Assembly (NCBI GenBank): GCA_000309945.1
Contig: CM001633.1
Coordinates: 4,289,912 to 4,353,911 of the forward strand
Direction of reading: 5' to 3'
DNA length: 64,000 bases
From: Leptolyngbyaceae cyanobacterium JSC-12
GTDB lineage: Bacteria; Cyanobacteriota; Cyanobacteriia; Leptolyngbyales; Leptolyngbyaceae
Position 1 is the stretch's first letter. Each line of letters opens with the position of its first letter. The notes below the pieces were generated by a model. The model was not told where the DNA came from and searched no databases. It saw only the letters and a list, made by a program, of their open reading frames with translations. Below are positions 3,050-34,130 of this stretch, piece by piece. The position numbers and the translations under genes were made by a program.

Positions 3050-3148
3050 ATGTTTGATTTGAGCCAGTTGAATGAACAATTCAGAATTCGACGATCATAC
3101 GCAATGGCTAATTGAATAAGGGTTTCATACGTTTGATGCAAGCACTCC

Positions 3149-12731: not shown

Positions 12732-15408
12732 ATGCCTCTAAGGTTTTCCCTGTTTCTGGATCGCGCCGCCCCTGCCGTCCAAACTTTGCAAGTATCTCTG
12801 CGAGTTGTAGAAGAGTCCCAGACGGAACTGGGTACGCTGCTAACCAAACTAGACACCCACAAATATGGGCTGACTGCTGCGCAATCCCGACAACGCCTTC
12901 GTCAATTTGGCCACAACGAAATTACCCATGACAGTCCATCGTCCTGGTATGGGCAACTGCTGCATGGGTTCAATAATCCCTTTGTCTATTTGCTGCTGGG
13001 ATTAGCGATCGCCTCCTGGCTTATGGGAGATATTCAGGGCATGGGAGTGTTACTAGCGATCGTGCTGCTGAGTGGATTGTTTCGATTTGGACGGGAATAC
13101 CACTCGACGAAAGTGGCGGCAAAGCTACGGACATTAGTCAATGTGACAGTAACTATTAGCCGCTACAACGATCTGATGCCACGTGAGCGACGACAGGAAA
13201 TCCCAATTCATAATTTAGTTCCTGGCGACATTGTGCATTTGTTGCCAGGAAAGATGGTGCCTGCAGATGTACGGCTACTGGAAGCAAAAGACTTATTCGT
13301 GAGTCAGGCAATTCTCACTGGAGAATCCACCCTGGTGCAAAAGCACGACACCCTGGGCAACCCAGTGGAAAAAATCGCGATTCGCTATGCTCGACCCAAT
13401 CCTCCCGACCCGCTTGATACCCCCACTATTTGCTTTATGGGAACGACTGTGATGGGAGGTACTGCCAGGGCTGTGGTGGTGGCAACGGGGAATCAGACTT
13501 ATTTGGGATCCCTAGCCCAAGCGATCGCGGGCAAACGCGCCCTGACGAGTTTTGAAGCAGGCGTTAATCGGGTCACCTGGTTGCTGATCGGCTTCATGGC
13601 AGTGATGGTGCCGATCGCCTTTCTGCTGAACAGCATCAGTCGCGGACAGCAAAATGCCGCCTTCTTTTTCGCCATTGCAGTTGCTATCGGCTTAGTGCCA
13701 GAAATGCTACCGCTGATTGTGAGTCTCAATCTGACGCGAGGAACCAATGTATTGGCAAAGCAACAGGTGCTGGTGAAGCGGGTAGACGCGATTCAAAATC
13801 TGGGGGCGATCGATGTTCTGTGTACAGATAAGACAGGCACTCTGACACAAAATCAGGTTTCACTAGCGCACCATATCGATCCACTAGGGCAGGACAGCCC
13901 AGAAACACTAAACTATGCCTATCTCAACAGTTACTATCAGACGGGTGTGCAAAATCTATTGGATGCCGCCGTGCTAAAGCATACTGAGTTAGAGCACTCG
14001 CTGCATCTGAAATTGGATTACCGTAAGCTTGGAGAAGTTCCGTTTGATTTTGTCCGGCGACGGTTGTCGGTGGTGCTAGAACACGAAGGACAACCCCTGT
14101 TGATCTGCAAAGGAGCAGTCGAAGGAGATAGTAACGCTCTGCTCAACAGCCAAAGTCCAGGGTCGGGTGGTGCGCTTAACAGAAGATCTCTATCGGCAGA
14201 GTCGGGAGGTTGCACAGCGACTCAACTCCGATGGCTTTCGAGTGTTGGCGATCGCCTACAAGCGCTTCGGCACCCCCAAGGAACACTATGCCGTCGAAGA
14301 TGAGTTCAGCTTGACCTTGGTGGGCTATCTGGCCTTTCTCGATCCACCCAAGGAAAGTGCCAGGGAGGCGATCGCAGCCCTGCAAGCTAACCATGTAGCC
14401 GTGAAGATCATTACGGGAGACACAGAAGCCATTGCCCGAAAGATCTGTCAGGATGTGGGGCTGACCGTGCAGTGGGTGCACTTAGGCGCGGTCGTAGAGC
14501 GGATGACGGATGCTGAACTGGCAGCAGTGGTTGAGGAAACGACCATCTTTGCCAAAATGTCTCCTGCGCAAAAGGCACGGGTGGTTCGAGCATTGAAGCA
14601 GCGGGGGCATACGGTCGGATATTTGGGAGATGGCATTAACGACGCCCTAGCCCTGCGCGATGCGGATGTGGGCATTTCGGTCGATACAGCGGTGGATGTG
14701 GCAAAAGAATCAGCAGACATTATCTTGCTGGAAAAAAGCTTACTGGTGCTAGCGCAAGGCATCCAAGAAGGCCGCCGCACCTTTGGCAACCTGATCAAGT
14801 ACATTAAAATGGCCACCAGTTCCAACTTTGGGAATGTGTTCAGCGTTTTGGGAGCCAGCATTTTTCTGCCCTTCCTACCGATGCTGCCCATCCAACTATT
14901 GATCCAAAATCTGCTGTATGACCTATCTCAGACGACAATTCCCTTTGATCGCGTCGATGAAGACTACCTGGCAACGCCGCAGCGCTGGTCGGTTCGAGAT
15001 TTGCGTCGCTTTATGCTGTGCCTGGGGCCGGTCAGTTCTGTGTTTGACTATGCCACCTTTGCCGTGCTGTGGTTTGGGCTGGAGTTCAACACGCCAGAGG
15101 CAGCCCCTCTGTTTCAATCGGGCTGGTTTGTAGAAGGCTTGCTGTCCCAAACCCTGATCATTCACGTGATTCGGACTGCGAAACTCCCCTTTTTTCAGAG
15201 TACGGCAACGCTCCCAGTGTTGGTGCTGACAGGGCTGGTAATGGCGATCGCCCTAATCCTGCCCTTCACCTCACTTGGAGCAACCTTTGGACTAGTCTCC
15301 CTTCCAGCCCGTTACTTCCTTTGGCTTGTCATGATTCTGGTCAGTTATTGCTTACTCACTCAAAGAATTAAAGTGTGGTATATCCAACAATTTGGCAAGT
15401 GGCTATAA
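12732..15408 (+). pseudogene. mgtA: MgtA-type cation P-type ATPase, split by a one-base frameshift
   Basis: Two overlapping frames together encode one MgtA-like ATPase of about 890 residues. The first frame carries the N-terminal cation_ATPase domain, TGES in the A domain, and the phosphorylation site CTDKTGTLT. It runs to ICKGAVE at 14123. The second frame continues as EIVTLCSTAKVQG and holds GDGINDALAL plus the C-terminal membrane helices. Alignment with the intact paralogue at 16836 (ICKGAVEELFNVCS) puts the shift at GAAGGAG, 14121-14127, where one extra G is present. All catalytic motifs are otherwise intact, so the lesion is either recent or an assembly/sequencing error. Substrate is predicted to be Mg2+. 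Confidence 0.85.
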
Positions 15409-16835: not shown

Positions 16836-19571
16836 ATGCGGAATACTCCCACCCCAGCCCGCGGACGGGGCAATGTCAATGAACGCGCCCTGGAAAGCGC
16901 TAAGCTATCGCTGCGTGCCCTAGAAGAAGCGGGCAGCAGCGTCGATCAGGTGTTGCGATCGCTCGACAGCAATCGTAAGGGTTTGACCGAAGCCGATGCC
17001 CGTGATCGCCTACGCAAGTACGGCAAAAACGAAGTTAGCCACGAAAAGCCACCCGCCTGGTATGTGCAACTGTTCAAGGCGTTCAACAATCCCTTTGTCT
17101 GGATCTTGGTGGCGCTGGCAACGGTCTCTTACGTGATGGACTATGCCCTGGCTGCCCCCGAAGACAGAGACCTCAAAACTGTGATTATTCTATCCATCAT
17201 GGTGCTGGTCAGCGGCTTCCTGCGGTTTTTCCAGGAATACCGCTCCACCCAAGCGGCGGAAAAGCTGAAAGCTATGGTCAGCACCACTGCAACGGTGATT
17301 CGCCGCGATCGTCTGGATGGTAAAGAGCATCGTCGGGAAGTGCCCCTGAGCGATCTGGTTCCGGGCGATGTAGTGGCGTTGTCGGCGGGAGATATGATCC
17401 CAGCGGATGTGCGGCTATTGACCTCTAAGGATCTGTTCGTGAGTCAAGCCGTGCTGACGGGGGAATCCCTGCCCGTAGAAAAGTACGACACCCTGGGCAG
17501 TGTGGTAGAAAAGCGGGCAGATGTGAATGTGAATGAAGATCAGGTGAGTGCGCTAGATATTCCCACCGTCTGCTTCATGGGCACCAATGTCGTCAGTGGC
17601 ACGGCGACGGCGGTGGTGGTTTCCACGGGCGATCGCACCTACTTCGGCTCTCTGGCCAAAAACATCGTAGGCAAGCGCGTTCTCACCAGCTTTGAAAAAG
17701 GCGTCAACCGGGTCAGCTATCTGCTGATCACCTTCATGGCAGTGATGGTGCCGATCGTCTTCCTCATCCAATGGTTTACCAAAGGCAGTTTTCTGGATGC
17801 CCTGCTGTTTTCGTTATCCGTGGCCGTGGGGCTAACGCCGGAAATGCTACCCATGATCGTGACCGCAAACCTGGCGCGGGGTGCAGTCGTGATGGCGAAT
17901 CAAAAAGTAGTGGTCAAACGCATCAACGCCATCCAGAACTTTGGGGCAATGGACATCCTCTGCACCGACAAAACCGGCACGTTGACGCTGGATAAGATCA
18001 TCCTGGAGCGCCATGTGGATATCCACGGCTACGAGGATGACGAACCCCTGGAATATGGCTATCTGAACAGCTACTACCAGACCGGCTTAAAAAACCTGCT
18101 GGATGTGGCAGTGCTGGAGCATGTGGAGTTAAATACAGAACTCAAACCCGCAGAAAACTACGCCAAGGTGGATGAAATTCCCTTCGACTTTGTGCGTCGC
18201 CGCATGTCGGTGGTGGTGGAACCGCGTGGGGGGCGCTCAGAAGGCCAGCATGTGCTGATCTGCAAAGGAGCAGTTGAGGAACTGTTCAACGTTTGCTCCC
18301 ATGCTAAGTATCACGGCGAAATCATGCCCATGAACGAGTTTGTGCGGCTGGAAGGGCTACGGGTGACCCAAAGCCTGAATGAAGACGGCTTCCGGGTGAT
18401 TGCCGTCGCCTATAAGGAAATCCCCATTCCGCTAGACACCGTTCCTACCTACAGCGCCAAGGATGAATGCGACCTGATTTTGGTCGGCTATCTGGCGTTC
18501 CTTGATCCGCCTAAAGATAGTGCGATTGAGGCGATCGCTGCCCTGAATGACAACGGCGTTGCTGTCAAAGTGATCACCGGTGACAACGATATTGTCACCC
18601 GCAAAGTCTGTAAGGAGGTGAACCTAGAAGTTGAAGGAGTGCTGGTGGGTAGCCAGATTGAACGCCTGAGCGACGAGGAACTCACATCCCAACTAGACAC
18701 CACCACCATCTTCGCCAAGGTCTCCCCCCTGCAAAAAGCTCGCATTGTTCGCCTGCTGCGTGAGCAAGGGCACACCGTCGGTTACCTAGGCGATGGCATT
18801 AACGATGCTGCGGCCCTGCGGGATGCGGATGTCGGCATCTCGGTCGATACTGCCGTAGATATTGCCAAAGAATCGGCAGACATCATCCTGCTAGAAAAGA
18901 ACCTCATGGTACTGGAGCGGGGTGTGATTGAGGGACGGCGCACCTTTGCCAACATTCTTAAATACCTGAACATGACCGCCAGTTCCAACTATGGCAACGT
19001 GTTCAGTGTCATGGGGTCGAGTGCTGTGCTGCCCTTCCTGCCGATGCAGCCCATCCAACTGCTGACCCAAAATCTGATCTACGACCTGTCCCAAACCACC
19101 ATCCCCTTCGACAACGTGGATAAGGAGTTTCTCCGCAAACCCCAGAAGTGGAATGTGCCCAACATCGGGCGGTTCATGCTGTTCATTGGTCCGATTAGCT
19201 CCATCTTTGACTATGCCACCTACATCGTCATGTGGTTCGTGTTTGCAGCCAATACCCCAGAGGAAGTGAAACTGTTCAACTCTGGTTGGTTTGTGGAAGG
19301 GCTACTCTCCCAAACCCTGGTGGTTCATATGTTGCGGACGGCGCGGGTGCCCTTCTTCCAAAGCTGGCCCTCCCTGCCCGTGTTGCTCTCCACTGGCACT
19401 GCCATTATCGCTGGGATGATCCTGCCCTTTACCCCCCTTGGGGCAAATTTAGGGATGGTTCCTCTGCCTGCTAATTACTTCATCTGGCTGTGGTTGATTC
19501 TCGGCTCCTACTGCCTGCTGACTCAATCTCTCAAAGGTCTCTACATCCGCACCTTTGGCAAGTGGTTGTAG
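16836..19571 (+). CDS. mgtA: MgtA-type magnesium/cation P-type ATPase
   Basis: 911 residues, full length. GAGAGGAGG precedes the ATG. Domains: cation_ATPase_N (about 40-110), two helices, the actuator domain with LTGESLPVE, two helices around FLIQWF and VAVGLTPEMLPMIV, the phosphorylation site ILCTDKTGTLTLDK, nucleotide-binding KGAVEE, hinge YLGDGINDAAALRDAD, and six C-terminal helices. The GLTPEMLPMIV and CTDKTGTLT contexts are those of MgtA/MgtB Mg2+ importers. Its paralogue at 12732 is frameshifted, so this is the working copy of the pair. Followed by a duplicated 92-93 base unit and a 45-residue membrane protein. Confidence 0.93.
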   Translation: MRNTPTPARGRGNVNERALESAKLSLRALEEAGSSVDQVLRSLDSNRKGLTEADARDRLRKYGKNEVSHEKPPAWYVQLFKAFNNPFVWILVALATVSYVMDYALAAPEDRDLKTVIILSIMVLVSGFLRFFQEYRSTQAAEKLKAMVSTTATVIRRDRLDGKEHRREVPLSDLVPGDVVALSAGDMIPADVRLLTSKDLFVSQAVLTGESLPVEKYDTLGSVVEKRADVNVNEDQVSALDIPTVCFMGTNVVSGTATAVVVSTGDRTYFGSLAKNIVGKRVLTSFEKGVNRVSYLLITFMAVMVPIVFLIQWFTKGSFLDALLFSLSVAVGLTPEMLPMIVTANLARGAVVMANQKVVVKRINAIQNFGAMDILCTDKTGTLTLDKIILERHVDIHGYEDDEPLEYGYLNSYYQTGLKNLLDVAVLEHVELNTELKPAENYAKVDEIPFDFVRRRMSVVVEPRGGRSEGQHVLICKGAVEELFNVCSHAKYHGEIMPMNEFVRLEGLRVTQSLNEDGFRVIAVAYKEIPIPLDTVPTYSAKDECDLILVGYLAFLDPPKDSAIEAIAALNDNGVAVKVITGDNDIVTRKVCKEVNLEVEGVLVGSQIERLSDEELTSQLDTTTIFAKVSPLQKARIVRLLREQGHTVGYLGDGINDAAALRDADVGISVDTAVDIAKESADIILLEKNLMVLERGVIEGRRTFANILKYLNMTASSNYGNVFSVMGSSAVLPFLPMQPIQLLTQNLIYDLSQTTIPFDNVDKEFLRKPQKWNVPNIGRFMLFIGPISSIFDYATYIVMWFVFAANTPEEVKLFNSGWFVEGLLSQTLVVHMLRTARVPFFQSWPSLPVLLSTGTAIIAGMILPFTPLGANLGMVPLPANYFIWLWLILGSYCLLTQSLKGLYIRTFGKWL

Positions 19572-21251: not shown

Positions 21252-23420
21252 ATGGATTATCAGCAGTTGGATCAGTTGAAAGCTCTTTGTCATGATGATG
21301 TTGCCTTTGAAAAACTCCAGAAGTACTTTTCGACTTGTATCGATGCTGCTAAGGCAGGGCAGCAAAAAGCGTTATTTCGAGTCATTACAAAAATCCGTGA
21401 ATCCTTAGACCTAAAAGCAATTTTTCAGACCACTGCAATTGAAGTCCGGCAACTGTTAAATGCAGATCGCGTTGCGCTGTTCCGCTTTGCCCTCAATTCT
21501 GGTTGGAATGATGGCGAGTTTGTTTCGGAAGATGTTGCTCCCGAGTTTAAGTCGGTTCTATCGGAAAAGGTTCACGATCACTGCTTCGGTGAACAGTATG
21601 CGATTGATTACCACAAAGGACGCGTGCAAGCTGTTAGCGACATTCAAACTGCGGGCTTGAAGGAGTGCCACGTTGAGATCTTAAAGCGCTTTCAAATTCG
21701 CGCTAATTTAGTCGTGCCAGTCCTAGAAGGGGAAACACTTTGGGGACTACTTTGCATTCATCAATGTTCTGCCCCCCGCACTTGGACATCTGATGAAATC
21801 GAGTTTATTCAGCAAGTTGCAACCCATCTTGGCGTTGCGCTTCAACAAGCAAAACTGTTGAACAAAGTGCGCTTTCAAGCAGAGCAGCAAAAGGCCTTGT
21901 TTAAGGTTGTTACTCGAATTCGAGAACCAATGGAACTGGAAGCTATTTTTAGAACGGCTGCCATTGAATCTCGACAATTGCTCCAGTCTGATCGCGTTGC
22001 AATCTTTCGATTTGCACCGGATTCTGGTTGGAATGATGGAGAGTTTGTGTCGGAGAGTGTTGGGGAGGGTTATGCATCAGTCCTAGCAGAGAGGGTTCAC
22101 GATCATTGTTTTGGCGATCGCTACGCTGCGGCCTATCATCAAGGACAAGTGCAGGCGGTTGCTGATATTTACTCATCCGGTCTTCAGGACTGCCATATTG
22201 AAGTTCTGTCGCGCTTTCAGATTCGAGCCAACTTAGTCGTGCCTCTGTTGCAGGGAACCTATTTGTGGGGCTTGTTGTGCATTCATCAATGCGCTGAAGC
22301 TCGGTTCTGGGAAGCAGAAGAGATTGAATTTGCTAAACAAATTGCAGCCCAGCTTAGCGTTGCGCTATGGCAGGTAGAGTTATTAACCAAAACTCAACAA
22401 CAGGCGACTGAGCTAAGTGCGTCATTAGATCGTCTCAAAAAAGCACAGACCCAATTGATTCAAAGCGAAAAGATGTCGAGCTTGGGGCAGCTTGTGGCCG
22501 GAGTTGCTCACGAAATTAATAATCCTGTTAATTTTATCCATGGCAACATCAACCATGCTTACTGCTATGCTCAGGATTTGATGGGACTAGTTAAACTTTA
22601 TCAGCAGCATTATCCACACCCTGTTCGTGCAGTGGGCGATCGCGCTCAGGAAATTGATATTGACTTCCTCATGGAAGACTTTCCTCGAATGCTGACATCG
22701 ATGCAAATTGGGGCTGAGCGAATCCGCAACATTGTGCTGTCTCTTCGGAACTTTTCGCGGCTCGACGAAGCAGAGATGAAAGTCGTGGACTTGCACGAAG
22801 GGCTGGAAAGTACCTTGCTGATTTTGAATTATCGCCTCAAGCCCAAGTCGGTTTCTAATCCTGCTCAAAATATTCAACTGGTTAAGGAGTACGGATCGTT
22901 GCCCTTGGTGGAGTGTTATCCGAGCCAGCTGAATCAGGTGTTTATGAATTTGCTCAGCAATGCGATTGATGCTTTGGAAGAGCAAATTGCGGCGAGAGAA
23001 AAGGTGCTTCAAGAATCTGGGAGCAACAGCCTCGATAATCTACTCCAGCCCACTATTACCATTCGGACTCAACTGTGTGGTCGACCGGATAAAGACGATG
23101 GTCTATATCAAGCTGGCCGTATGGGCGATCGCCATAACTCCGAGGATGTAGGGGGCTTGGAGAGCGATCGCCCTCAGTACCTTTCTATCTGCATTGCCGA
23201 CAATGGCCCTGGGGTGCCCGAAAAACTTCAAGCCAAACTATTCGACCCCTTTTTTACAACCAAGCCTGTCGGCAAGGGAACTGGCTTAGGACTTTCAATT
23301 AGCCAGCAAATTATCTGTGAACGGCATCGCGGCACGCTCCGGTGCATCTCACAGCCTGGCAAAGGTACAGAATTCCACATTACAATTCCAGTCCGTCAGT
23401 GCGAGACCAAGAAGCGGTAG
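21252..23420 (+). CDS. Tandem cyanobacteriochrome-type GAF sensor histidine kinase
   Basis: 722 residues. Two GAF domains (about 47-208 and 214-377) that are close copies of each other, then a coiled-coil linker, a HisKA region with the phospho-acceptor VAGVAHEINNPVNF (about residue 417) and a HATPase domain (NLLSNAIDALEE, ADNGPGVPEKL, GKGTGLGLSIS). Each GAF has DHCF and, exactly 28 residues later, a CH pair (LKECHVEIL, LQDCHIEVL), followed by RANLVVP and WGLLCIHQC. That is the arrangement of DXCF-class cyanobacteriochromes, in which two cysteines bind a bilin. A light-sensing kinase, probably blue/green-type, is therefore predicted. No receiver domain or partner regulator is adjacent. A loop of about 30 residues (ESDRPQYL region) is inserted in the ATPase domain. 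Confidence 0.85.
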   Translation: MDYQQLDQLKALCHDDVAFEKLQKYFSTCIDAAKAGQQKALFRVITKIRESLDLKAIFQTTAIEVRQLLNADRVALFRFALNSGWNDGEFVSEDVAPEFKSVLSEKVHDHCFGEQYAIDYHKGRVQAVSDIQTAGLKECHVEILKRFQIRANLVVPVLEGETLWGLLCIHQCSAPRTWTSDEIEFIQQVATHLGVALQQAKLLNKVRFQAEQQKALFKVVTRIREPMELEAIFRTAAIESRQLLQSDRVAIFRFAPDSGWNDGEFVSESVGEGYASVLAERVHDHCFGDRYAAAYHQGQVQAVADIYSSGLQDCHIEVLSRFQIRANLVVPLLQGTYLWGLLCIHQCAEARFWEAEEIEFAKQIAAQLSVALWQVELLTKTQQQATELSASLDRLKKAQTQLIQSEKMSSLGQLVAGVAHEINNPVNFIHGNINHAYCYAQDLMGLVKLYQQHYPHPVRAVGDRAQEIDIDFLMEDFPRMLTSMQIGAERIRNIVLSLRNFSRLDEAEMKVVDLHEGLESTLLILNYRLKPKSVSNPAQNIQLVKEYGSLPLVECYPSQLNQVFMNLLSNAIDALEEQIAAREKVLQESGSNSLDNLLQPTITIRTQLCGRPDKDDGLYQAGRMGDRHNSEDVGGLESDRPQYLSICIADNGPGVPEKLQAKLFDPFFTTKPVGKGTGLGLSISQQIICERHRGTLRCISQPGKGTEFHITIPVRQCETKKR

Positions 23421-23698: not shown

Positions 23699-25087
23699 CT
23701 AGGTTGCCTTGGGTTTGCGCTGCGATTTTGCAGCCTTACCCTGGGACTGGGCTTGACGCTCTGCCCGAATCCGCTCTAGCAACACCGACGCAGGCTCATC
23801 ATTGGGGTCTTGGGGCACCAGTTCCCCCCGAAAAGCTTTGGCTAAGGTCGCCTGCTCCAACCTGTCGCACAGCTTCACCGCCTTTTGATATTCCTGCTCT
23901 ATCTTGTCAATCTTCTCAAACCTCTCCTCAACCCGCCGCACAATCTCTTTTTGTTCTTCGATTGGTGGAATTGGAATGGGGAGCTTATAAAGCCCAGCCT
24001 TATTTATTTTAGGTAAAACTGTTCGTCCTTGGTGTTCCATTGCCAGAACATTGAAATCATCTGATATGAGCCAATACAGGAGATACTTTGTATTGCATCG
24101 TGCATTTATTGGATACATATCAGCACTACATACACCTTCAAAGTCAATTATTACTGCTTTACGCAAATAAGGTCGAATCTTTGAGTAGATCAGTTGACCA
24201 GGGAAAAAGCGATGTTTTGGACTAACTACAGCATCCTCTCTTACTGTCTTAAAAGGTAGTAGTTGTGGCTTTCCTGACTCAATATGATTAGGTGCAATAT
24301 GGGGTAGATCCATTACTTCAGACGGATTCACAAGATTACTGACTACTTCAGCAATGTCTGATATATATTTCCAATCCCAACTTGCTGGAATTATCCAAGG
24401 CTCTCCATACCGCATATCTTGTTGATCATTGTGCCAATCTGCGGTTAAATCACCACGAAAAGCAGCCGCTAAGACCGCTTGTTTGTAACGGGCGATTAGT
24501 TTGGGGATATGGCTTAACTCATGACGCGCCCTGCGGAGGCGCTCCATAATCCGATCCAACTTCTCCACAATCCGCCGTTGTTCATTGAGTGGCGGTAAAG
24601 GGATTTTAATTTGTCGTATATGGCTAAGATTGACCCTAGCTCTTGTAGTTCCCTTTGTCTCAGCTTGCAATTGATTAATTACGACTTTGGAATTTATAGC
24701 ATGGAGAAGATAGGGTTTTGAGACAAATCTTTCATCAGGTCTAACTCTAACTATATCAGCAACAATTATTCCTTCTTTAATATTATTTGGAACAAGACAA
24801 GCCTTACCTAAAGGATCTCCTAACTTTGTGATAACAATATCACCATTTATAAAGCTATGCCGTTTTAGAGAATCTGCTTTTTCAGAACTGATAAATTTGA
24901 TATTCTTGTCAATAAACTGATTCCTGTCAATATTTTGCAAGCGAATTATAGGTATTCCAGAATCTAGATACTCAGTCGCTTTTAAGTTAGATCCAAATGG
25001 ACCATCAACAATATCATTTTTAGGATTCATTGTTATATCTTCCAATTGAATCCATACCCACCCGATCGGCAAATCGTCAGCCATCAC
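23699..25087 (-). CDS. hsdS: Type I restriction-modification specificity subunit HsdS
   Basis: 462 residues with the usual two-fold layout. A first target recognition domain (LPIGWVWIQLEDIT ... ) is followed by the conserved helix IPLPPLNEQRRIVEKLDRIMERLRRAR. A second TRD (WKYISDIAEVVSNLV...) is followed by IPIPPIEEQKEIVRRVEERFEKIDKIE. A final segment, ATLAKAFRGELVPQDPNDEPASVLLERI, is typical of HsdS C-termini. HsdS directs the methylase/nuclease complex to a bipartite DNA site. The subunit is intact, but its partner hsdM (27007) lacks its N-terminus and no hsdR is in the window. Confidence 0.93.
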   Translation of the reverse strand: MMADDLPIGWVWIQLEDITMNPKNDIVDGPFGSNLKATEYLDSGIPIIRLQNIDRNQFIDKNIKFISSEKADSLKRHSFINGDIVITKLGDPLGKACLVPNNIKEGIIVADIVRVRPDERFVSKPYLLHAINSKVVINQLQAETKGTTRARVNLSHIRQIKIPLPPLNEQRRIVEKLDRIMERLRRARHELSHIPKLIARYKQAVLAAAFRGDLTADWHNDQQDMRYGEPWIIPASWDWKYISDIAEVVSNLVNPSEVMDLPHIAPNHIESGKPQLLPFKTVREDAVVSPKHRFFPGQLIYSKIRPYLRKAVIIDFEGVCSADMYPINARCNTKYLLYWLISDDFNVLAMEHQGRTVLPKINKAGLYKLPIPIPPIEEQKEIVRRVEERFEKIDKIEQEYQKAVKLCDRLEQATLAKAFRGELVPQDPNDEPASVLLERIRAERQAQSQGKAAKSQRKPKAT

Positions 25088-25139
25088 TTAACCTCAATTC
25101 TAATGAAGATCATCAGTTGAGTAATTTGCATAAGTTGAT

Positions 25140-25526
25140 TTACCATAGTGTTTTAACTGCATATTCGCCAAATACTTCATCTTCGGATATCAAGGTTAAA
25201 GATTCGGATATGGCTTGAGAAACTAGCATTCGATCAAAGGGATCTCGATGGTGAAATGGTAAATCTTCTAACACGGACAAATGTGAAATATGTATTGGTA
25301 AAATTCTTAACCCGCTAGGGAGAATAAAGTTAGTCATGATTTGTTCGAGTGACATACCGAGTTCAAGTTTGCCTAGGCTAATTTTAATGGTTATTTCCCA
25401 TAAGCTGGCAATACTGAAATACAAACTATTATTTTCATCTTCGATCGCATACCTTGCCGTTTTGTTCAGCTTTTCACTGCCAGCGATTAACCAAATCAGG
25501 ATGTGGGTGTCTAGCAATAATTTCAT
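25140..25526 (-). CDS. PIN-domain toxin (VapC-like ribonuclease)
   Basis: 128 residues, normal for the family. Conserved acidic residues of the PIN fold are present: LLDTHILIW (first Asp), the SLWEITIK glutamate, HRDPFDRMLVSQAI (third Asp) and TLISEDEVF. VapC toxins cut tRNA or rRNA. The start codon overlaps the stop of the preceding antitoxin gene by four bases (ATGA). Located between hsdS and a MITE-like repeat, it forms part of the cargo inserted in the type I locus. Confidence 0.9.
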   Translation of the reverse strand: MKLLLDTHILIWLIAGSEKLNKTARYAIEDENNSLYFSIASLWEITIKISLGKLELGMSLEQIMTNFILPSGLRILPIHISHLSVLEDLPFHHRDPFDRMLVSQAISESLTLISEDEVFGEYAVKTLW

Positions 25527-25747
25527 TCCATGTACTCGGCAAAATCTTTTAAGGGCGCATTAAAATCATCTGCTATGACAACCTTACCGCGCAGGCAACC
25601 AAATAAATCCTGACGGCTAAAGCTATTTAGTGGCAATTGGTTGACGGTGCCTTGCCAGCGCCCGATCAAGTATGAAATTACATCCAACTGTTCCTGAAAA
25701 TCGAGCTGATCTATTTCTGCCAGGACTTTTTCTAATAAAGGACTCAT
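25523..25747 (-). CDS. Antitoxin partner of the PIN toxin (DUF2281/VapB-like)
   Basis: 74 residues: LLEKVLAEIDQLDFQEQLDVISYLI at the N-terminus (helical, as in DUF2281-type antitoxins) and a C-terminal tail FNAPLKDFAEYME that would bind the toxin. Its stop overlaps the toxin start, the classic antitoxin-toxin order. No clear DNA-binding fold is visible, so autoregulation is uncertain. Confidence 0.75.
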   Translation of the reverse strand: MSPLLEKVLAEIDQLDFQEQLDVISYLIGRWQGTVNQLPLNSFSRQDLFGCLRGKVVIADDFNAPLKDFAEYME

Positions 25748-25879
25748 GACTCACTTCTCCACAATTCTTCACCATTTTTATTTCTGTAACAACCCACGCC
25801 GTCGGTAAAATCACTCATCACTCAACCTCACTCTTACTCAAAGCCTAGTACTTTGCGGCATCTGTTTCACCACCGATCT

Positions 25880-25973
25880 CCCTCATCCCCCAGCCCCTTC
25901 TCCCAAAACGGGAGAAGGGGAGTTCCGGATTGAAGTCCCTCTCCCTTTTTGGGAGAGGGATTTAGAGTGAGGG
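25880..25973. repeat. MITE-like inverted repeat, copy 2
   Basis: Begins CCCTCATCCCCCAGCCCC, ends GATTTAGAGTGAGGG, with internal hairpins CTCCCAAAACGGGAG and CTCCCTTTTTGGGAG. It is the same element as 16101-16197 in the opposite orientation. It stands just beyond the truncated end of the HEPN-like gene at 25990. Confidence 0.7.
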
Positions 25974-25989
25974 CCAATTCATCCTTTTT

Positions 25990-26088
25990 CTAATCAATCA
26001 TCGGGGCTAAATTCATTAACACCGATTCCAATTTTTCCACGCAATCAATCATATCGAGTAGCAACAAAACCAGCGATCGCCTAGACAT
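25990..26088 (-). pseudogene. HEPN-domain toxin, N-terminal fragment
   Basis: A 32-codon frame, MSRRSLVLLLLDMIDCVEKLE..., overlaps the end of the nucleotidyltransferase gene by eight bases. Its start resembles HEPN (DUF86) partners of MNT-family proteins, which begin with a basic segment and LLxDMxxxIxxI. Normal HEPN proteins have about 110 residues with an RxxxxH ribonuclease motif, which is absent here. The frame ends 16 bases before the MITE-like element, so the rest was probably lost by the rearrangement that brought the repeat. Confidence 0.5.
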
Positions 26089-26395
26089 AACGCACTTCAT
26101 CTTTAATAAAGTCCCAAGTACGGGGACGAACCGCCTTTTTGCTCAACAAATCCACATCACAGCCCAATTTTTCCTCAAGGAAATCTGCAAGAGCCACAAG
26201 CTCTAAACCCAAAGGGCGATCGTAATCAAACAAAATATCCACATCGCTTTCAATCCCCGCCTCGCCTCTTGCCACTGAACCAAACACCGCCAGTTCAGTT
26301 ACTCCCCATCGTTCATATAGATAGGGTTTGAGCGTATGTAAAATCGAGATGACCCGATCGAGTGCTGGCGCAGTAGATGTATTTTCGATACTCAT
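26081..26395 (-). CDS. MNT-family nucleotidyltransferase (antitoxin type)
   Basis: 104 residues with the minimal nucleotidyltransferase signature AVFGSVARGEAGIESDVDILFDYD (landmarks GSVARGEA and SDVDILFDY; the two aspartates bind Mg2+) and ELVALADFLEEKLGCDVDLLSKKAVRP. In MntA/HepT pairs the MNT protein AMPylates and silences the HEPN toxin. Here the HEPN partner is reduced to a 32-codon stub. Three bases separate it from the Uma2 gene upstream. Confidence 0.85.
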   Translation of the reverse strand: MSIENTSTAPALDRVISILHTLKPYLYERWGVTELAVFGSVARGEAGIESDVDILFDYDRPLGLELVALADFLEEKLGCDVDLLSKKAVRPRTWDFIKDEVRYV

Positions 26396-26398
26396 GGA

Positions 26399-27010
26399 TC
26401 AAGCTCCAATCATCTGGGACGACGGCTCCGGGAATTCCACCTCCTCATAGACCAACGCCAAGGGACACTGAAAATCCAGACTCACCAGTTCTAAAATAGG
26501 ATTTTCCTGATCCGCCACATCGTCTGGATAGGCGGTCAGTTCCCATTTGCCCGCACTGGTTTTGCGATAGCAGTCTATGCCCACCTTCTCGGAGTCAATC
26601 AGCACATATTCTTCTAGCGTGGGAATGCGGCGATAAAACCTAAACTTATCGCCCCGGTCAAAACCAGCCGTGCTAGGCGAGAGAACTTCAGCAATCAGCT
26701 TGGGATATTGGATAGCTTCTATGGCTCGGCGATCGCGTTCATCACAACTCACCACCAAATCAGGATAAAAATACGGCCCTTTGGCGGCAACTCTAACTTT
26801 TGCATCAGACATCCGCACCTTGCACCCTGTTCCTCGCAGAGTCGTTCTCAGAATACTTGTCAAATTTACCGCAATGTCATTGTGGGGCAGTGTCCCACCC
26901 GTCATCGCGTAGACTTCCCCATCCATGTATTCGTATTTGATGGGTTGTTGAGCTTCCCACGCTAGGTATTCATCGGGTGTTAAACCTTTGGGTTGAGCAT
27001 TCGCAATCAT
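26399..27010 (-). CDS. Uma2-family (DUF820) PD-(D/E)XK nuclease-like protein
   Basis: 203 residues with the family features LTPDEYLAWEAQQPIKYEYMDGEVYAMTGGT (landmarks YLAWE, KYEYMDGEVY), GTGCKVRMSDAKVRV, YFYPDLVVSCDERD and KLIAEVLSPSTAGFDRGDKF. This is the predicted catalytic core of a restriction-like fold (E, D and ExL of the sheet). Cyanobacteria carry many copies with no settled function. The ATG overlaps the hsdM stop by four bases, so it is co-transcribed with the methylase remnant. Confidence 0.9.
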   Translation of the reverse strand: MIANAQPKGLTPDEYLAWEAQQPIKYEYMDGEVYAMTGGTLPHNDIAVNLTSILRTTLRGTGCKVRMSDAKVRVAAKGPYFYPDLVVSCDERDRRAIEAIQYPKLIAEVLSPSTAGFDRGDKFRFYRRIPTLEEYVLIDSEKVGIDCYRKTSAGKWELTAYPDDVADQENPILELVSLDFQCPLALVYEEVEFPEPSSQMIGA

Positions 27011-28041
27011 GACTGACCTCCAGTGAACTCCTCTATCAGTGTCTCCATTTCTTGCAAGGCATTGGCTAAATGGGTGGCGATCGCGGCGGCAATTTCCTCC
27101 GGCTCCGTTAGCTCATCCTCTGGATCATGACTCGTATCCCATAGCCAGCTAAGATCTAAATTATCCTGGCGATCGGCAATCTGTTGACGACTGAAGCACC
27201 GCCAGCGCTCTTCTTCCCCCTGATCCATGCGAGACGACTGGCCATAGGGGTCATCCCCAAAAGCGGCTTCAAACTCCGCAAAATCGTCGCGAGTCAGTTG
27301 CCGGGTTTTCCCAAAGCTATTCATATTGGTTCGCAGATCATAGACCCAAACGGCTTGGGTATTGCTGCGCTCCGTTTTGCCCCGCGTGAAAAACAGCACA
27401 TTCGTTTTGACTCCCTGGGCATAAAAAATCCCCGGCGGCAAGCGCAAAATCGTATGCAGATCGCACCATTCCATCAATTGCTGTCGTAGCCTGCGCCCCG
27501 TATTGTCCTCAAACAACACATTATCTGGCACCACCACCGCCGCCCTGCCCCCCGGTTTCAGAGCGCGATAAATATGCTCCACAAACGCCAACTGCTTGTT
27601 CGAGGTTTCGGCAGTAATGGAAAAATCCGATCGCGTCGGTCGTCCGCCCCCTTTCTTCGTCCCAAAGGGCGGATTGGTCAAAATCACATCGGCTTTCCCC
27701 AATGTTTCCCCATCCGGTGACAGGCTATCGCCACAGCCCACCATACTTTCAATGCCATGCAGCATCAAATTCATCAGGCACAGCCGATGGGTATCAGGCA
27801 CCAGTTCCAACCCCCGATAAGCCTCCTGGCGCTGGAAATGAGCCTGCTCTGGGGTCAGCGTATAGAAATCATCCGTCTGCTTTTTGATGTACTGATCCGC
27901 CGCCACCAAAAAGCCCCCTGTACCTGCCGCCGGGTCTTGAATCACCTCCCCCGCTTGGGGTTTCACCAGCCGCACCAGGCAATCAATCAATGGACGGGGT
28001 GTAAAGTACTGCCCTGCCCCCGCCAAAAATAATGACTTCAT
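27007..28041 (-). CDS. hsdM: Type I DNA methylase HsdM, 5'-truncated
   Basis: 344 residues covering only the catalytic half of HsdM, normally about 480-520 residues. Present: GAGQYFTPRPLIDCLV, the SAM-binding loop DPAAGTGGFLVAA, the catalytic ILTNPPFGTKKGGGR (N6-adenine NPPF), and the C-terminal region with SWLWDTSHDPEDELTEPEEIAAA. The N-terminal helical domain that contacts HsdS is absent. The frame opens at MKSLFLAGAGQYF, where the normal sequence would still run upstream, and a stop lies at 28081. Methylation activity is doubtful. Confidence 0.88.
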   Translation of the reverse strand: MKSLFLAGAGQYFTPRPLIDCLVRLVKPQAGEVIQDPAAGTGGFLVAADQYIKKQTDDFYTLTPEQAHFQRQEAYRGLELVPDTHRLCLMNLMLHGIESMVGCGDSLSPDGETLGKADVILTNPPFGTKKGGGRPTRSDFSITAETSNKQLAFVEHIYRALKPGGRAAVVVPDNVLFEDNTGRRLRQQLMEWCDLHTILRLPPGIFYAQGVKTNVLFFTRGKTERSNTQAVWVYDLRTNMNSFGKTRQLTRDDFAEFEAAFGDDPYGQSSRMDQGEEERWRCFSRQQIADRQDNLDLSWLWDTSHDPEDELTEPEEIAAAIATHLANALQEMETLIEEFTGGQS

Positions 28042-29427: not shown

Positions 29428-30917
29428 ACAACTTGGCAAGTTACCGAAGTAGAAAAAACGATCGCCAATCAACTGGGGAGGAGAGCTTGTAAAATCTGTT
29501 CATTTGTATGTCCGTGAGAACATCGCGTCACAATGAATTGCAGCAAATCATCAAAGGCTTGACGAGTGAGGGTATAGAGCTTCTGTCCCACCGTTTGCTT
29601 GCCTTGAGCAAACTCAAATCGTTCAGATTGTGCGCCAGAACAGGCAGTCCGTTGCAGAATCGACTGCGCCACGCAACTAAGACGGAAGTGACGGTTGACC
29701 GCTTCCTCGTTCCGCACCTGAGCCGACTCTAGCCCGGTGTGCTGTTTGCTCACCTCATGAAAGACCTCGCAGGACCATCGATAACTCCAAGTCTGCATGA
29801 CTCGCCCACTTTCCCAATGCAACGCATCGGTGAGCAGGAAGCGAGGTGGGTCTTGTAAATCTGCTTGCTCGTGGACGATGACCAATCGCTTGCGTCCAAA
29901 CTTCTTGAGGCGCACGACTTTGGTAAATGCCCAAATCGGTTTCGTTTCGCCGTTGCGGCAAGTGACTTGAATCGGGCGAAAGCTCTCTGGGTGATGGATT
30001 CTGAGTTCTAAACCAATCGCATCTACCCGTTGCCATTGGTCATTCCACAAGATGTTGCGAGAACTTTCAACTTCACTCACCCAGTGTTTTCCTGCGGACT
30101 CAATCATGGTGGTTAACTCAACGGTCAACACCCCATTGTCAAACGCATAATCGGCGGTGGGAAATTGTCCTTCCGCTTCCACTTGGCGCACAATCTCGAC
30201 GGCAATCTCGGTGCGTTTGCGATACTCCAATCGATTCTTGTGATAATGCAACATCTCAATCAGTCGTTCTCGCACTTGGTCTAAATCGTCATAGTGGGAT
30301 TTTGCCGTCACCTTCAGATACTCCCGTTCTGCCACTGAAAAATCTGGAAACTGCACCACCACGTCAATCCCATCAATTAGGTGGCGGTTCGCAATCGTCG
30401 CCGTCACCACCGTTTGAAAGCAACTCATCCGATGTTCCACATAATCATAGGATCGCTTCACCCCAAAGATCTGCTTGCCCCAATCGTGATGGCTGAGCGT
30501 CCAATCCAGACTGATGACTTCTCGCCCTCGCCCCTGATGCTCTTTGGCTATCACAGCACGATGATGGGACATTAACTCTGAACTCCTCCAGCCCGCCTCA
30601 AACACCGCTGCGTGCATCGCTCTTCGTCCGCCGACCTCCCCACCTGCTACCCATTGTCCGGCAATCCCTTGCAAGGTTTTGTTCTCACTCAACAGCAATC
30701 CGGTCACATAGCGACTCACCTGCTCAAAGCCTGCGCCTCGGCAGAACAGGTCTCGATATTTCCCAAACTCTTGAGCAATCGTCGATGGCACAGCGACAAA
30801 GGGCAGCATGATACGGCTACGGCTAACGTCTCCTACATTTTCTGCTTATCTTTTTCCTTTCTGGGTAACTTGCCAAGTCGTGTATCTTTTTCCTTTCTGG
30901 GTAACTTGCCAAGTCGT
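29428..30917 (-). mobile_element. IS element (IS4/IS701-like) with 18-bp terminal inverted repeats
   Basis: About 1490 bases. Ends are ACAACTTGGCAAGTTACC (left) and, read inward from the right, ACGACTTGGCAAGTTACC, with one mismatch in 18. A 9-bp duplication GTAATCAAC flanks it. The only gene is a DDE transposase at 29469-30809. The right end is tandemly duplicated (36-base unit at 30848-30919). The 9-bp duplication argues for the IS4 group; transposase features alone do not fix the family. Confidence 0.9.
29469..30809 (-). CDS. DDE transposase of the IS element
   Basis: 446 residues, intact. The likely catalytic triad is D in SLDWTLSHHDWGKQ, D in ADYAFDNGVL and E in the C-terminal YRWSCEVFHEVSKQHTGLE, the Y-(2)-R-(3)-E-(6)-K type signature of IS4-superfamily transposases (here YRWSCEVFHEVSK). 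An N-terminal helical region precedes it. As the frame is complete and the ends are near perfect, the element may still be mobile. Confidence 0.9.
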   Translation of the reverse strand: MLPFVAVPSTIAQEFGKYRDLFCRGAGFEQVSRYVTGLLLSENKTLQGIAGQWVAGGEVGGRRAMHAAVFEAGWRSSELMSHHRAVIAKEHQGRGREVISLDWTLSHHDWGKQIFGVKRSYDYVEHRMSCFQTVVTATIANRHLIDGIDVVVQFPDFSVAEREYLKVTAKSHYDDLDQVRERLIEMLHYHKNRLEYRKRTEIAVEIVRQVEAEGQFPTADYAFDNGVLTVELTTMIESAGKHWVSEVESSRNILWNDQWQRVDAIGLELRIHHPESFRPIQVTCRNGETKPIWAFTKVVRLKKFGRKRLVIVHEQADLQDPPRFLLTDALHWESGRVMQTWSYRWSCEVFHEVSKQHTGLESAQVRNEEAVNRHFRLSCVAQSILQRTACSGAQSERFEFAQGKQTVGQKLYTLTRQAFDDLLQFIVTRCSHGHTNEQILQALLPS

Positions 30918-33004
30918 GTAATCAACGCTATATTTTGCTGCACGATGGCGATCGCCTCATCGGCCAACTCAAAGGCAGTCACCAGGGTCGTGAGGCGGCC
31001 CTGAGGTAAGGTCAAGTCAGCAATATCTTGAATGGGGGGATACGACTGGTGAGTGCCGACGGCCACATCGGCATAGCGCAGAGCCGGGTAGTCATCCATG
31101 CCTTCCCCCACGTAGATAACAGTGTGGCCGGCAGCTTGCAACTGACAGACAAACTCTTTTTTATCCTGGGGGCTGAGTTCTGGGCGAATGTAATCGGGGG
31201 CAAGCCCCACCTGGGTACCAATTGCCGTCGCAAGTTGGGGGTGGCCGCCAGTGACCATATACACAGTCATGCCCCGCTGTTTCAGGCGGGCGATCGCTGC
31301 CTCGGCCTCCGGTCGAACCTGGGCACAGCAGATAATCTGCCCCAGCAGGCGCTCTCCTTGAGCCACGTAGACATACCAGTAGCCTTGGTGCAGTCCATCC
31401 TGGCTACCCACTGGCCCATCAAACGCTTCTGGAAACAATACGCCCGCCTGTTGCAGATAGTTGCGGCTGCCGACCACCACCCGTTGCCCATCAATTTGGG
31501 CGGAGACTCCTAGCCCTGCTCCCTGCTTTGGGTAACAGGCTTCGCTCTGCGGCAGTGTTAGGCCAAGCGCGTTGGCTTCTGACATGATGGCGCGGGCTAC
31601 GGGGTGCTGCCACTCGGTTTGGTCGCATTGCTCGGCAGCGGCGGCCAAAGCAAGCAGGGCATGGGTCGGGTTTTCGATCGGGGCAGGAAGCAAGGACTGG
31701 GACTCAGGAGCAACCCGTACGCTAACGACAGACAGGTCGGCCTCGGTCAGCGTGCCTGTGCGAGCAAAAACGACCGTATCTGCTGCCGCTAGAGTCTCAA
31801 ATACTCGACCCGATCGCACTTTGATTTGCAATTGCTGCGCCCGCTTCATCATGGCCAGGATAGCGGTGGGAGTGGATAGGTGAATACCCGTGATCAAATC
31901 GAGTTGGAGGAGCGCCAGGGCCCGCTCCAGGTTTTGGGTGAGCAGATAGATGCCCCCAGAGAGGGCCAGGGTAGGGAGTACCAGGGTCTGTCCAACTGCC
32001 CTGGCATAGTCACTCAGTTCGGTTTGCTGGAGAGGAACTGCCTCGGCTAGCTCCAATTCTTGACCGTACTGGGTCTTCGTCCCCAGTGCTTCCACCACTA
32101 TCACCAGTTCTCCCTCAATCAGACTGCTGCCATAGAGAATGCGCTCGCCAGAACTCCGGGGCAGGGGGGAAGGTTCTCCGGTCAGGGTGCTAAGGTCTAG
32201 CCAGGCTTCTCCAGCGAGAATGCGACCGTCGGCGGGGCAGGTATCCCCGGTTTGCAGAACCACGCGATCGCCCAGGTTAAGATCCTCAATCGCCATCTCC
32301 TGGAGTTGTCCCTCTCGCTGAACCCGCACCCGGTCAATCGGGGGAATGGGATCGATGGTCGGGGTTGCGGCTGAGGCAGAGGTGGCCTCCCGTAGCACAT
32401 CGGCCACCTCCGACAGCACCAAATCCAGGTTGGGGGCTACAAAGTCGCCAGTGAATCCATAAAACAGCGTCCAAATGGATTCGAGCAATTCTTCGTCAAA
32501 GCGACCCCGGATCAGGCTCTGGCGAGTGCGGTCTAGCAGTGGCACAGCCGCAGCCAGGGTCAAGCCGCCCAGCAACCAGGGATACAGAGACCATTCCAAA
32601 GGAGTCAGCAGCAGCGCCAGGGTCAGCCCTAGGGTTGGCAAGGTCAGTCGCTGCAGCAGTTCTAAATCCAAGGGGTCGGTGGCAGGAAAAAGGGGTTGCT
32701 CCGAGGCTCTGGGTGCAGGTTCATGAATGAACAGGTGCTGTAGACAGTCCCGCAGGCGATCGCACACCTCCGCCGCTACAAGTCCCGGCTCATGCTCGAT
32801 CACTACAGATTCAGCCCAGGGGTTGACGCGGACAGAGGAAACGCCAGGATAGAGAGAAAGCTGCGATCGCACTGCCTCGGCCGCATCAGCCGACCATCGC
32901 AGCCCCGCCAGGCGTAACCGTAGCCGCCCCCGCAGCTGGTGAACCACCTGAACATTGAAGGTTCTGAAAGGGATTGCCATCGGGGTCGCCATGTCGATTC
33001 TCAC
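30833..33004 (-). pseudogene. P-type ATPase homologue lacking the catalytic aspartate, interrupted by IS
   Basis: 723 codons. N-terminal HMA2-like domain (VQVVHQLRGRLRLRLAGL, about 17-75; no CxxC), then membrane segments, actuator domain with LTGEPSPLPR (TGE kept, 275-277), phosphorylation region VVFARTGTLTEADL where DKTGT has become ARTGT (Ala414, Arg415), HP motif kept (HPVAR), TGD replaced by TGG (585), and the hinge GDGxND replaced by GEGMDD (633-638). Three catalytic acids are thus lost while the frame stays open, which looks like a maintained pseudoenzyme. The gene was then cut by the IS after IALIT (695). The last about 28 codons come from the IS end, and the true C-terminus lies at 29226-29427. 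Confidence 0.85.
30848..30919. repeat. Two perfect 36-base copies of the IS right end
   Basis: ATCTTTTTCCTTTCTGGGTA plus ACTTGCCAAGTCGTGT occurs at 30848-30883 and again at 30884-30919. The unit contains the terminal inverted repeat and reaches two bases into the target duplication. On the coding strand it gives the repeated peptide RLGKLPRKEKDT at the end of the interrupted ATPase frame. Confidence 0.9.
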
Positions 33005-33162
33005 TCGGCTGCGTTTGAGGGGGACACTCGGCTGATCATATCTAGCTGCTTAACCTATTTTGTGAGGGACGTAGCAGGGGCGCAATTGTACCCCGTAGTG
33101 ATCCCTCCCTACCATTGACGAGAATCCGGGCTTTTCGGCACTGCGTGGGTCAACTAGGGCAG

Positions 33163-33765: not shown

Positions 33766-33838
33766 AGAGGTTTAACAGCACAACACCCTACAATAGGGTC
33801 TTGCAATCCGATCTACTTAAATCCGATTTAGTCTATTG

Positions 33839-33860
33839 ATGTACAACTGATGTACAACCT
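33839..33860. repeat. Tandem 11-base direct repeat upstream of the HMA2-HTH gene
   Basis: TGATGTACAAC is repeated twice without spacing, about 75 bases before the start codon of the 33163-33765 gene. Position and spacing of one helical turn would suit an operator. Confidence 0.5.
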
Positions 33861-33971
33861 TTGCCAGGCTGATCAGGTGCAGTTTTCGGTGGGCAGAGAT
33901 GGAACTCTTATCTGGGGGCACCGTCACACCCCCCTCATACTCCACCAGCGTGAAAAATGCCGTATACTAGC

Positions 33972-34130
33972 TTAATCGTCATGGGCCAGCTTAAAGCAGA
34001 GGGCTGAGAGCAAAAAGAAGGGAATCGCAGGAAGCCCTGGCAAAATTACACCGATAACCCCCACCACAAAGCTAACGACCCCTGCTGTGTAGAGAACTGC
34101 TTTCCGCAGATTATTAAGCGCAATGTCCAT
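33972..34130 (-). CDS. Short DUF454 (YbaN)-like membrane protein
   Basis: 52 residues; GGAG stands about nine bases before the ATG. MDIALNNLRKAVLYTAG... contains GVIGVILPGLPAIPFFLLSALCF, the signature of the DUF454 family (usually G-x-LP-LLPTTPFLLLAA-CF). Normal members have about 120 residues with further helices, so this is either a minimal variant or a 3'-shortened gene. It sits between the active ATPase and the HMA2-HTH gene in the same direction. Confidence 0.65.
   Translation of the reverse strand: MDIALNNLRKAVLYTAGVVSFVVGVIGVILPGLPAIPFFLLSALCFKLAHDD

What the first reader, a model, noticed from the sequence alone, without database searches (positions are those of the whole stretch)
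21252..23420. Orphan kinase with two near-identical DXCF cyanobacteriochrome GAF domains
Both GAFs have DHCF and CH cysteines spaced exactly 28 residues apart, as in known dual-Cys cyanobacteriochromes. Two copies so similar suggest a recent intragenic duplication. No regulator lies nearby, so output is unknown.
Basis: partly seen in the sequence, partly recalled or inferred. Interest (0 to 1): 0.6.

Follow-up and report, generated by a model that had tools for sequence, protein, structure and literature searches.

The report
Tandem blue-light cyanobacteriochrome histidine kinase
This cyanobacterial gene encodes a well-preserved light-sensing kinase of a known kind, with two related bilin-binding domains probably switched by blue light; it seems to have passed between cyanobacterial families and has no obvious partner gene next to it.

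Summary
The ORF is real: 21252-23420 (+), 722 aa, two GAF domains plus a histidine kinase. Both GAFs carry DHCF and CH cysteines 28 residues apart, in the columns of TePixJ's two bilin-ligating cysteines. No response-regulator domain was found in the window. The GAFs are not near-identical: 65% aa identity, third codon positions 41% identical. Six orthologues (59-82% identical) have the same tandem, and a sister pairing of the two window GAFs is rejected (p-AU 0.0008), so a recent duplication is wrong. The GAFs belong to a DXCF lineage with a loop insertion (three residues here) that sits nearest the red/green (XRG) group, not TePixJ. Both have the beta2 and helix-alpha4 Phe that TePixJ lacks; published work ties these to 'trapped-twist' teal photoproducts. 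I therefore predict a blue/teal, not blue/green, photocycle. Synonymous divergence to a genome of another family is low (dS 0.84; chelatase gene against a genus mate 1.38), so horizontal transfer is likely. Verdict: new member of a known kind; partner and physiology unknown.

The parts
21252..23420 (+). tandem-GAF cyanobacteriochrome sensor histidine kinase, 722 aa
21252..21359 (+). N-terminal helical leader, residues 1-36
   Evidence: helices in the full-length model, low to middling confidence; a similar leader opens the proteins of L021 and L070
21360..21866 (+). GAF1 (residues 37-205), DXCF cyanobacteriochrome domain
   Evidence: Pfam GAF; CBCR profile; AlphaFold2 model pLDDT 90.6 whose best PDB matches are cyanobacteriochromes
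21495..21512 (+). GAF1 loop (about residues 82-87) with the 3-residue insertion relative to TePixJ and NpR6012g4
   Evidence: alignment; lengths
21519..21521 (+). GAF1 beta2 Phe90
21576..21587 (+). GAF1 DHCF motif, second Cys = Cys111
21666..21671 (+). GAF1 canonical Cys139 and His140
21690..21692 (+). GAF1 Phe147 at the end of the fourth helix (alpha4 position)
21789..21923 (+). predicted signalling helix joining GAF1 to GAF2 (residues 180-224)
   Evidence: DSSP of the full-length model
21885..22391 (+). GAF2 (residues 212-380), DXCF cyanobacteriochrome domain
   Evidence: Pfam, CBCR profile
22020..22037 (+). GAF2 loop (about residues 257-262) with the 3-residue insertion
22044..22046 (+). 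GAF2 beta2 Phe265
22101..22112 (+). GAF2 DHCF motif, second Cys = Cys286
22191..22196 (+). GAF2 canonical Cys314 and His315
22215..22217 (+). GAF2 Phe322 (alpha4 position)
22314..22610 (+). predicted continuous helix from GAF2 into the dimerisation/phosphoacceptor domain (residues 355-453)
22509..22511 (+). predicted phosphoacceptor His420 (AHEINNP box)
   Evidence: invariant in 27 aligned sequences; HisKA match below its Pfam cut-off
22923..23396 (+). HATPase_c kinase domain (residues 558-715)
   Evidence: Pfam 80.1 bits, cut-off 26.4

Best explanation
A two-component photoreceptor kinase with two dual-cysteine (DXCF) cyanobacteriochrome GAF domains. Inferred mechanism: each GAF attaches phycocyanobilin through its canonical Cys (139, 314). 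The DHCF Cys (111, 286) adds to C10 in the dark, giving a blue-absorbing state, and the chromophore is isomerised to phycoviolobilin. Blue light turns 15Z to 15E and breaks the second bond. The beta2 and alpha4 Phe (90/147, 265/322) hold ring D twisted, so the photoproduct absorbs teal rather than green. The change passes down the inter-GAF and GAF-kinase helices to His420, changing kinase output to a response regulator encoded elsewhere. Shown here: the domains, motifs, their alignment to solved cyanobacteriochromes, lineage, conservation and gene context. Inferred: bilin binding, colours, signal direction, partner. The gene was most likely exchanged horizontally with a lineage near genus g42 of family f24 (direction not shown). 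Confidence: about 0.9 for a bilin-binding DXCF CBCR kinase, about 0.6 for blue/teal in both GAFs.
For: Both Cys of both GAFs are kept in 7 of 7 tandem orthologues, window included. DPCF/CH of TePixJ aligns column for column. GAF1 model: the first 41 Foldseek PDB rows are GAFs of cyanobacteriochromes or cyanobacterial phytochromes, or proteins derived from them; TePixJ Pb (4glq) TM 0.82/0.92, rmsd 1.4. With the trait columns removed, the insertion-bearing DXCF GAFs form one side of a branch (bootstrap/SH-aLRT 100/98, 46 rows), beside XRG (96/68) and apart from TePixJ. beta2/alpha4 are Phe/Phe in 62 of 72 of that group, 54 of 69 XRG-like, 2 of 15 other and 0 of 9 other DXCF GAFs. PMC5240096 and PMC5578081 (passages) link these Phe to trapped-twist tuning in red/green and teal-DXCF CBCRs. 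A PcyA-family bilin reductase gene is in the genome. Kinase motifs are invariant in 27 aligned sequences.
Against: No spectrum and no bilin binding are shown. No sequence of a measured teal-DXCF GAF (such as NpR1597g1) was available, so identity of this lineage with teal-DXCF is untested; the paper on DXCF lineages is not held. In a first tree of 101 rows the insertion-bearing branch was weak (SH-aLRT/bootstrap 78.9/54), and it held two relatives without the second Cys, which the group definition leaves out. VIA-align scores bacteriophytochromes as high as TePixJ, so fold alone does not decide. HisKA scores under its Pfam cut-off. GAF1 lacks the Tyr of the DIY stretch (Gln instead), a column that varies in the group (31 of 72 Tyr).
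Confidence: 0.65

Rival explanations
1. Same receptor, but blue/green like TePixJ and Tlr0924.
For: Same DXCF and CH columns and 28 spacing as TePixJ; typical DXCF CBCRs are blue/green (PMC11284453, opening text).
Against: The tree places it with the insertion-bearing lineage beside XRG, not TePixJ; TePixJ has Val and Leu where both window GAFs have Phe and Phe.
Confidence: 0.25
2. Green/teal receptor: PVB is formed but the DHCF Cys does not add to C10, so the dark state is green.
For: Green/teal CBCRs with trapped-twist PVB photoproducts exist (PMC12420706 passages); AM1_6305g1 isomerises without its second Cys (PMC11284453 passages).
Against: The DHCF Cys and its spacing are kept in both GAFs of 7 of 7 orthologues, which fits a chemical role.
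Confidence: 0.1
3. Only one of the two GAFs binds bilin or signals; the other is a structural spacer.
For: L070 and L142 have a single such GAF in front of the same type of kinase.
Against: All four residues examined (two Cys, two Phe) are kept in both GAFs of 7 of 7 tandem orthologues.
Confidence: 0.1
4. Recent intragenic duplication.
For: The copies share domain and motif; in one orthologue (L121, G071) the two GAFs are indeed sisters (100/97).
Against: 65% identity, third positions 41%, dS out of range; sister pairing rejected, p-AU 0.0008.
Confidence: 0.02

Closest known systems
TePixJ GAF (3vv4, 4glq, 6p58), a DXCF blue/green cyanobacteriochrome
   Same: DXCF and CH cysteines in the same columns, 28 apart; same fold
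   Different: No loop insertion; Val/Leu instead of Phe/Phe at the beta2/alpha4 positions; separate branch; deposited as a methyl-accepting protein, not a kinase
Teal-DXCF cyanobacteriochromes (for example NpR1597g1)
   Same: Expected: DXCF motif plus the trapped-twist Phe, and relatedness to red/green CBCRs (PMC5240096 passages)
   Different: No sequence was available to align; whether they carry the insertion is unknown here
XRG / red-green cyanobacteriochromes (AnPixJ, NpR6012g4)
   Same: beta2 and alpha4 Phe, nearest branch
   Different: They have WXDXXL and no DXCF Cys; the window has Val at the Trp position and Cys in DXCF
Dual sensor histidine kinase of 6oap (PPHK; name recalled), best PDB sequence match
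   Same: CBCR GAF in a histidine kinase; 46-49% identity over the GAF1 model
   Different: DQYF, so no second Cys
One-GAF DHCF kinases (L070, L142)
   Same: DHCF/CH GAF with the 3-residue insertion and the same type of kinase, 59-60% identical
   Different: One such GAF instead of two

Membership tests
DXCF (dual-Cys) cyanobacteriochrome | canonical Cys in the CH motif plus second Cys in Asp-Xaa-Cys-Phe | tested here: met
   Cys139/Cys111 and Cys314/Cys286 align with TePixJ
DXCF (dual-Cys) cyanobacteriochrome | GAF fold of the CBCR type, no PAS/PHY needed | tested here: met
   GAF1 model matches CBCR structures best; GAF2 was modelled only within the full-length protein; Pfam lists only GAF, HisKA and HATPase_c families
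DXCF (dual-Cys) cyanobacteriochrome | placement inside the CBCR tree with DXCF members | tested here: met
   100/98 branch of insertion-bearing DXCF GAFs; weaker (SH-aLRT/bootstrap 78.9/54)
DXCF (dual-Cys) cyanobacteriochrome | covalent bilin, PCB to PVB isomerisation, photoconversion | not testable with these tools
   needs expression and spectroscopy; bilin supply plausible, one Fe_bilin_red gene
Teal-DXCF sub-lineage | beta2 and alpha4 Phe for trapped twist | tested here: met
   Phe90/147 and Phe265/322; columns chosen as told in the full report
Teal-DXCF sub-lineage | clade with measured teal-DXCF GAFs | not tested
   no measured sequence held; key paper not held
XRG (extended red/green) cyanobacteriochrome | WXDXXL motif | tested here: not met
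   VHDHCF in both GAFs
Canonical phytochrome | PAS-GAF-PHY or GAF-PHY module | tested here: not met
   no PAS or PHY family at E <= 0.001 in Pfam
Two-component sensor histidine kinase | H box, N box, G boxes with HATPase_c | tested here: met
   HATPase_c 80.1 bits; H420, N566, N570, D650, G652, G654, G676 and G678 invariant in 27; HisKA only sub-threshold
NCBIfam T2SS_HK (NF038348) | score at or above 450 bits | tested here: not met
   234 bits

The most novel reading that the evidence does not exclude
The insertion-bearing DHCF GAFs are an undescribed DXCF lineage, sister to the red/green group, that kept the second Cys but already has the trapped-twist Phe pair: a living intermediate between DXCF and red/green receptors. 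In this kinase two same-colour copies, long diverged, work in series as a light-dose counter, in a gene that moves between cyanobacterial families without its partner.
Probability: 0.12. Interest if true: 0.6.

Novelty: new member of a known kind. Interest (0 to 1): 0.3.

Why it matters
DXCF cyanobacteriochromes are used as short-wavelength light switches and as a test bed for spectral tuning. This protein gives two naturally diverged copies in one kinase with the same Cys and Phe sets, and a sequence-based colour prediction (blue/teal rather than blue/green) that one expression experiment can settle. It also appears to be a photoreceptor kinase gene that moved between families on its own, which bears on how orphan kinases find partners.

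Tried and rejected
Recent duplication: rejected. The exact age is unresolved: all 14 tandem-orthologue GAFs as one clade is not rejected (p-AU 0.205), and all seven first GAFs as one clade is borderline rejected (p-AU 0.041).

A conserved neighbour as partner: none found. Protein comparison of window ORFs (100 aa or more) with L148-L153 and L070 matched only the kinase and reading frames overlapping it, and ten chosen neighbouring ORFs of orthologues held no response regulator (not every neighbour was scanned).

Divergence by positive selection between G057 and G232: not supported. Kinase dS (1.10) is like that of the five neighbouring ORFs compared (0.99-1.18) and only dN is raised (0.125); one of those neighbours has a similar dN (0.111).

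Insert-Cys identity: a simple pattern for a long loop with CXXR/K matched one GAF of the set, L100. Matching L047 to a named, measured Nostoc punctiforme receptor: not possible, no reference sequence. Papers: 'DHCF' with 'cyanobacteriochrome' gave 0; two searches for tandem or two-GAF DXCF proteins gave 5 and 2 papers, of which I saw passages of two from the first listing. sigma-70 and terminator scan at the locus: no more sites than in shuffles.

Rows dropped before counts: one search used 144 rows (138 of 189 domains, those covering over 135 profile positions, plus 6 references); one search used 101 of those 144 (canonical Cys present); one search used 213 GAFs including 6 references, without duplicate loci L148-L153; one search used 46 of 72, 18 of 69, 9 of 9 and 3 of 15 rows of the four groups; one search used 34 of 72.

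Full report
WHAT IS THERE. The ORF at 21252-23420 (+) encodes 722 residues. Pfam finds GAF in two stretches (159.4 bits for the whole protein, cut-off 22.4) and HATPase_c (80.1 bits, cut-off 26.4); HisKA is sub-threshold (24.5 against 26.9). DHCF lies at residues 109 and 284 and CH at 139 and 314, and the cysteine pairs are 28 apart in both GAFs. In alignment with the TePixJ chain 3vv4 both motifs fall on its DPCF and CH. Among 213 GAFs collected, 81 have D-x-C at the DXCF columns and a canonical Cys; 80 of them have spacing 28, 53 read DHCF, and 72 have a longer loop before strand beta2 than TePixJ: by three residues in 52, two in 19 and seven in 1; it is three in both window GAFs. So the exact 28 is a family trait, not special to this gene.

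NOT NEAR-IDENTICAL, NOT RECENT. GAF1 and GAF2 share 109 of 167 residues (65%); identity at codon positions 1, 2 and 3 is 69, 84 and 41%, and NG86 dS is out of range. Random matching at third positions would give about 26%. Six orthologues outside the window genome (L120/G232, L021/G057, L121/G071, L122/G197, L123/G269, L124/G281; 59-82% identical) have the same two DHCF GAFs. The first GAFs of window, G232 and G057 form a group, and so do their second GAFs, which further join L123's second GAF (94/82; 97/86). Forcing the window pair to be sisters is rejected (p-AU 0.0008); a clade of the six GAFs of the three closest genes is not (p-AU 0.62). In G071 the two GAFs are sisters (100/97), so separate duplication or homogenisation does happen in this family.

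LINEAGE AND COLOUR. A first tree of 101 GAFs (labels SH-aLRT/bootstrap) put the insertion-bearing DXCF GAFs with XRG (98.3/100), away from TePixJ (itself with two GAFs of this genome, L014), but their own branch was weak (78.9/54) and it included two rows without the second Cys. With the insertion, motif and Phe columns removed and the group defined by D-x-C, canonical Cys and insertion, the 46 rows form one side of a branch at 100/98 (bootstrap/SH-aLRT), XRG 18 rows at 100/99, and the two lie together at 96/68. At the beta2 and alpha4 Phe positions of the red/green receptor NpR6012g4, both window GAFs have Phe (90 and 147; 265 and 322). The Phe/Phe pair is found in 62 of 72 insertion-bearing DXCF GAFs, 54 of 69 XRG-like, 2 of 15 others and 0 of 9 DXCF GAFs without the insertion, TePixJ included. 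How I chose the columns: the spacings Phe-Trp 21 and Trp-Phe 40 in NpR6012g4 fit its Phe634, Trp655 and Phe695, numbers that I recall; in PMC5240096 the UG1 residues at the DXCF Cys column and alpha4 are 741 and 777, 36 apart like Cys111 and Phe147, while for UG2 they are 585 and 622, 37 apart. In the GAF1 model Phe90 lies in the second strand and Phe147 just after the fourth helix. Passages of PMC5240096 and PMC5578081 say that such Phe trap a twisted ring D in red/green and teal-DXCF receptors; the former says teal-DXCF receptors are related to red/green ones. That is why I predict blue/teal. PMC11284453 (opening text and passages) gives blue/green as typical for DXCF and says that XRG arose from DXCF lineages. 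The DXCF-lineage paper (Rockwell 2015) is not held, so I could not align a measured teal-DXCF GAF.

STRUCTURE. GAF1 modelled with 36 sequences: mean pLDDT 90.6. The best Foldseek hits are cyanobacteriochromes (6oap E 5e-21; 3w2z TM 0.91/0.86; 4glq TePixJ TM 0.82/0.92, rmsd 1.4). VIA-align gives Z 26.6 for 6xhh, 24.9 for 3w2z and 23.4 for 4glq, but bacteriophytochromes reach 23.9, so fold alone does not choose among bilin GAFs. The full-length model (pLDDT 81.5, pTM 0.40) has helices 180-224 and 355-453 joining the domains; the domain arrangement should not be trusted at that pTM.

OUTPUT. His420 and the N, D-x-G-x-G and G-x-G boxes are invariant in 27 aligned sequences. No Response_reg match lies in the window; the nearest are 28.6 kb upstream and 53.0 kb downstream, of 127 in the genome. 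None of ten neighbouring ORFs checked in orthologues is a regulator: RsgA, DnaJ, PRC-barrel, radical SAM, DUF72, a phosphonate-binding protein, TrkA-type, and three without a match. The partner is in trans and unknown. One Fe_bilin_red (PcyA-family) gene is present.

HORIZONTAL TRANSFER. In 388 genomes of the class, 70 have a match at E<=1e-130. The two-GAF orthologues that I recognised among the loci fetched come from six of these genomes, all family f24, while the window genome is family f1. One f1 genome (G025, L039) also has a protein with two insertion-bearing DXCF GAFs, but its loops are two residues longer than TePixJ's, not three, and its GAFs fall in other branches. In the two genus mates the best matches do not cover GAF1 (G002, residues 177-591) or cover only the kinase (G001, 84% complete). 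Kinase identity to G057 and G232 is 78 and 82%. Two control proteins behave differently. The magnesium-chelatase protein is 84% identical to G002 over its longest piece (81% over the whole gene), 76% to the other genus mate G001, 73% to G017 and only 59-69% to G009 of the same family, and 70-72% to G057, G071 and G197; G232 gave only a C-terminal piece at 76%, G281 a piece at 68%. The XPB-type helicase is 92 and 88% identical to the genus mates, 82% to G017, 74% to G009 and 72% to G057 and G232. So neither control is closer to g42 than to the genus mates over comparable lengths, whereas the kinase has its only near relatives there. Synonymous divergence window-G232 is 0.84 for the kinase, less than between G057 and G232 themselves (1.10; their five neighbouring ORFs 0.99-1.18), and less than for the chelatase gene between the window genome and its genus mate G002 (1.38). 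Window-G057 is 1.29. The flanking genes are not shared. NG86 dS near or above 1 is rough, and the direction of transfer is not shown. The order of the three closest genes differs between their first and second GAFs.

MECHANISM. As set out under Best explanation: two dual-Cys sensors in series on one helical stalk. Domains and residues are shown; chemistry, colour, signal direction and partner are inferred. Interest is modest: such receptors are a known kind, and kinases with several CBCR GAFs are common in the loci fetched. In one search, 54 proteins have at least one insertion-bearing DXCF GAF; 8 of them show exactly two and no other GAF found by the profile (7 are this orthologue group, the eighth is L039), and 17 show one only.

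Noticed in passing
window 12732-15408 (+): Two overlapping ORFs in different frames carry the N-part and C-part of one P-type cation ATPase: a frameshifted or decayed gene beside an intact relative at 16836-19571.
   Followed up: partly
window 23699-28041 (-): Type I restriction-modification genes: HsdS (23699-25087) and an HsdM ORF (27007-28041) whose best model match starts only at position 140 of 487, with PIN, nucleotidyltransferase (PDC-S09-like) and Uma2 genes between them; HsdR was not looked for.
   Followed up: partly
window 29469-37015 (-): DDE_5 transposase-like ORF (29469-30809) next to P-type ATPases (30833-33004, 34253-37015) and HMA_2 matches.
   Followed up: no
L121 (G071) 1123-3267: In this orthologue the two GAFs are each other's sisters (100/97), unlike the window: separate duplication or gene conversion.
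   Followed up: partly
L148 and L149: Between two genomes of one genus the kinase differs far more in protein (dN 0.125) than a nearby DnaJ gene (dN 0.026), though dS is alike; the RsgA-type neighbour (dN 0.111) is as fast.
   Followed up: partly
L014 (own genome) 553-4113 (-): A four-GAF protein of the same genome: two TePixJ-like DPCF GAFs, and a first GAF with DACIP and Ala at the canonical Cys column, which fits the DXCIP group without canonical Cys described in PMC5578081.
   Followed up: partly
L048 5419-9000 first GAF, L023 259-3546 fourth GAF: Relatives inside the insertion-bearing branch that lack the second Cys (HHYF/CD and DQHF/CY), possible colour-shifted derivatives.
   Followed up: no
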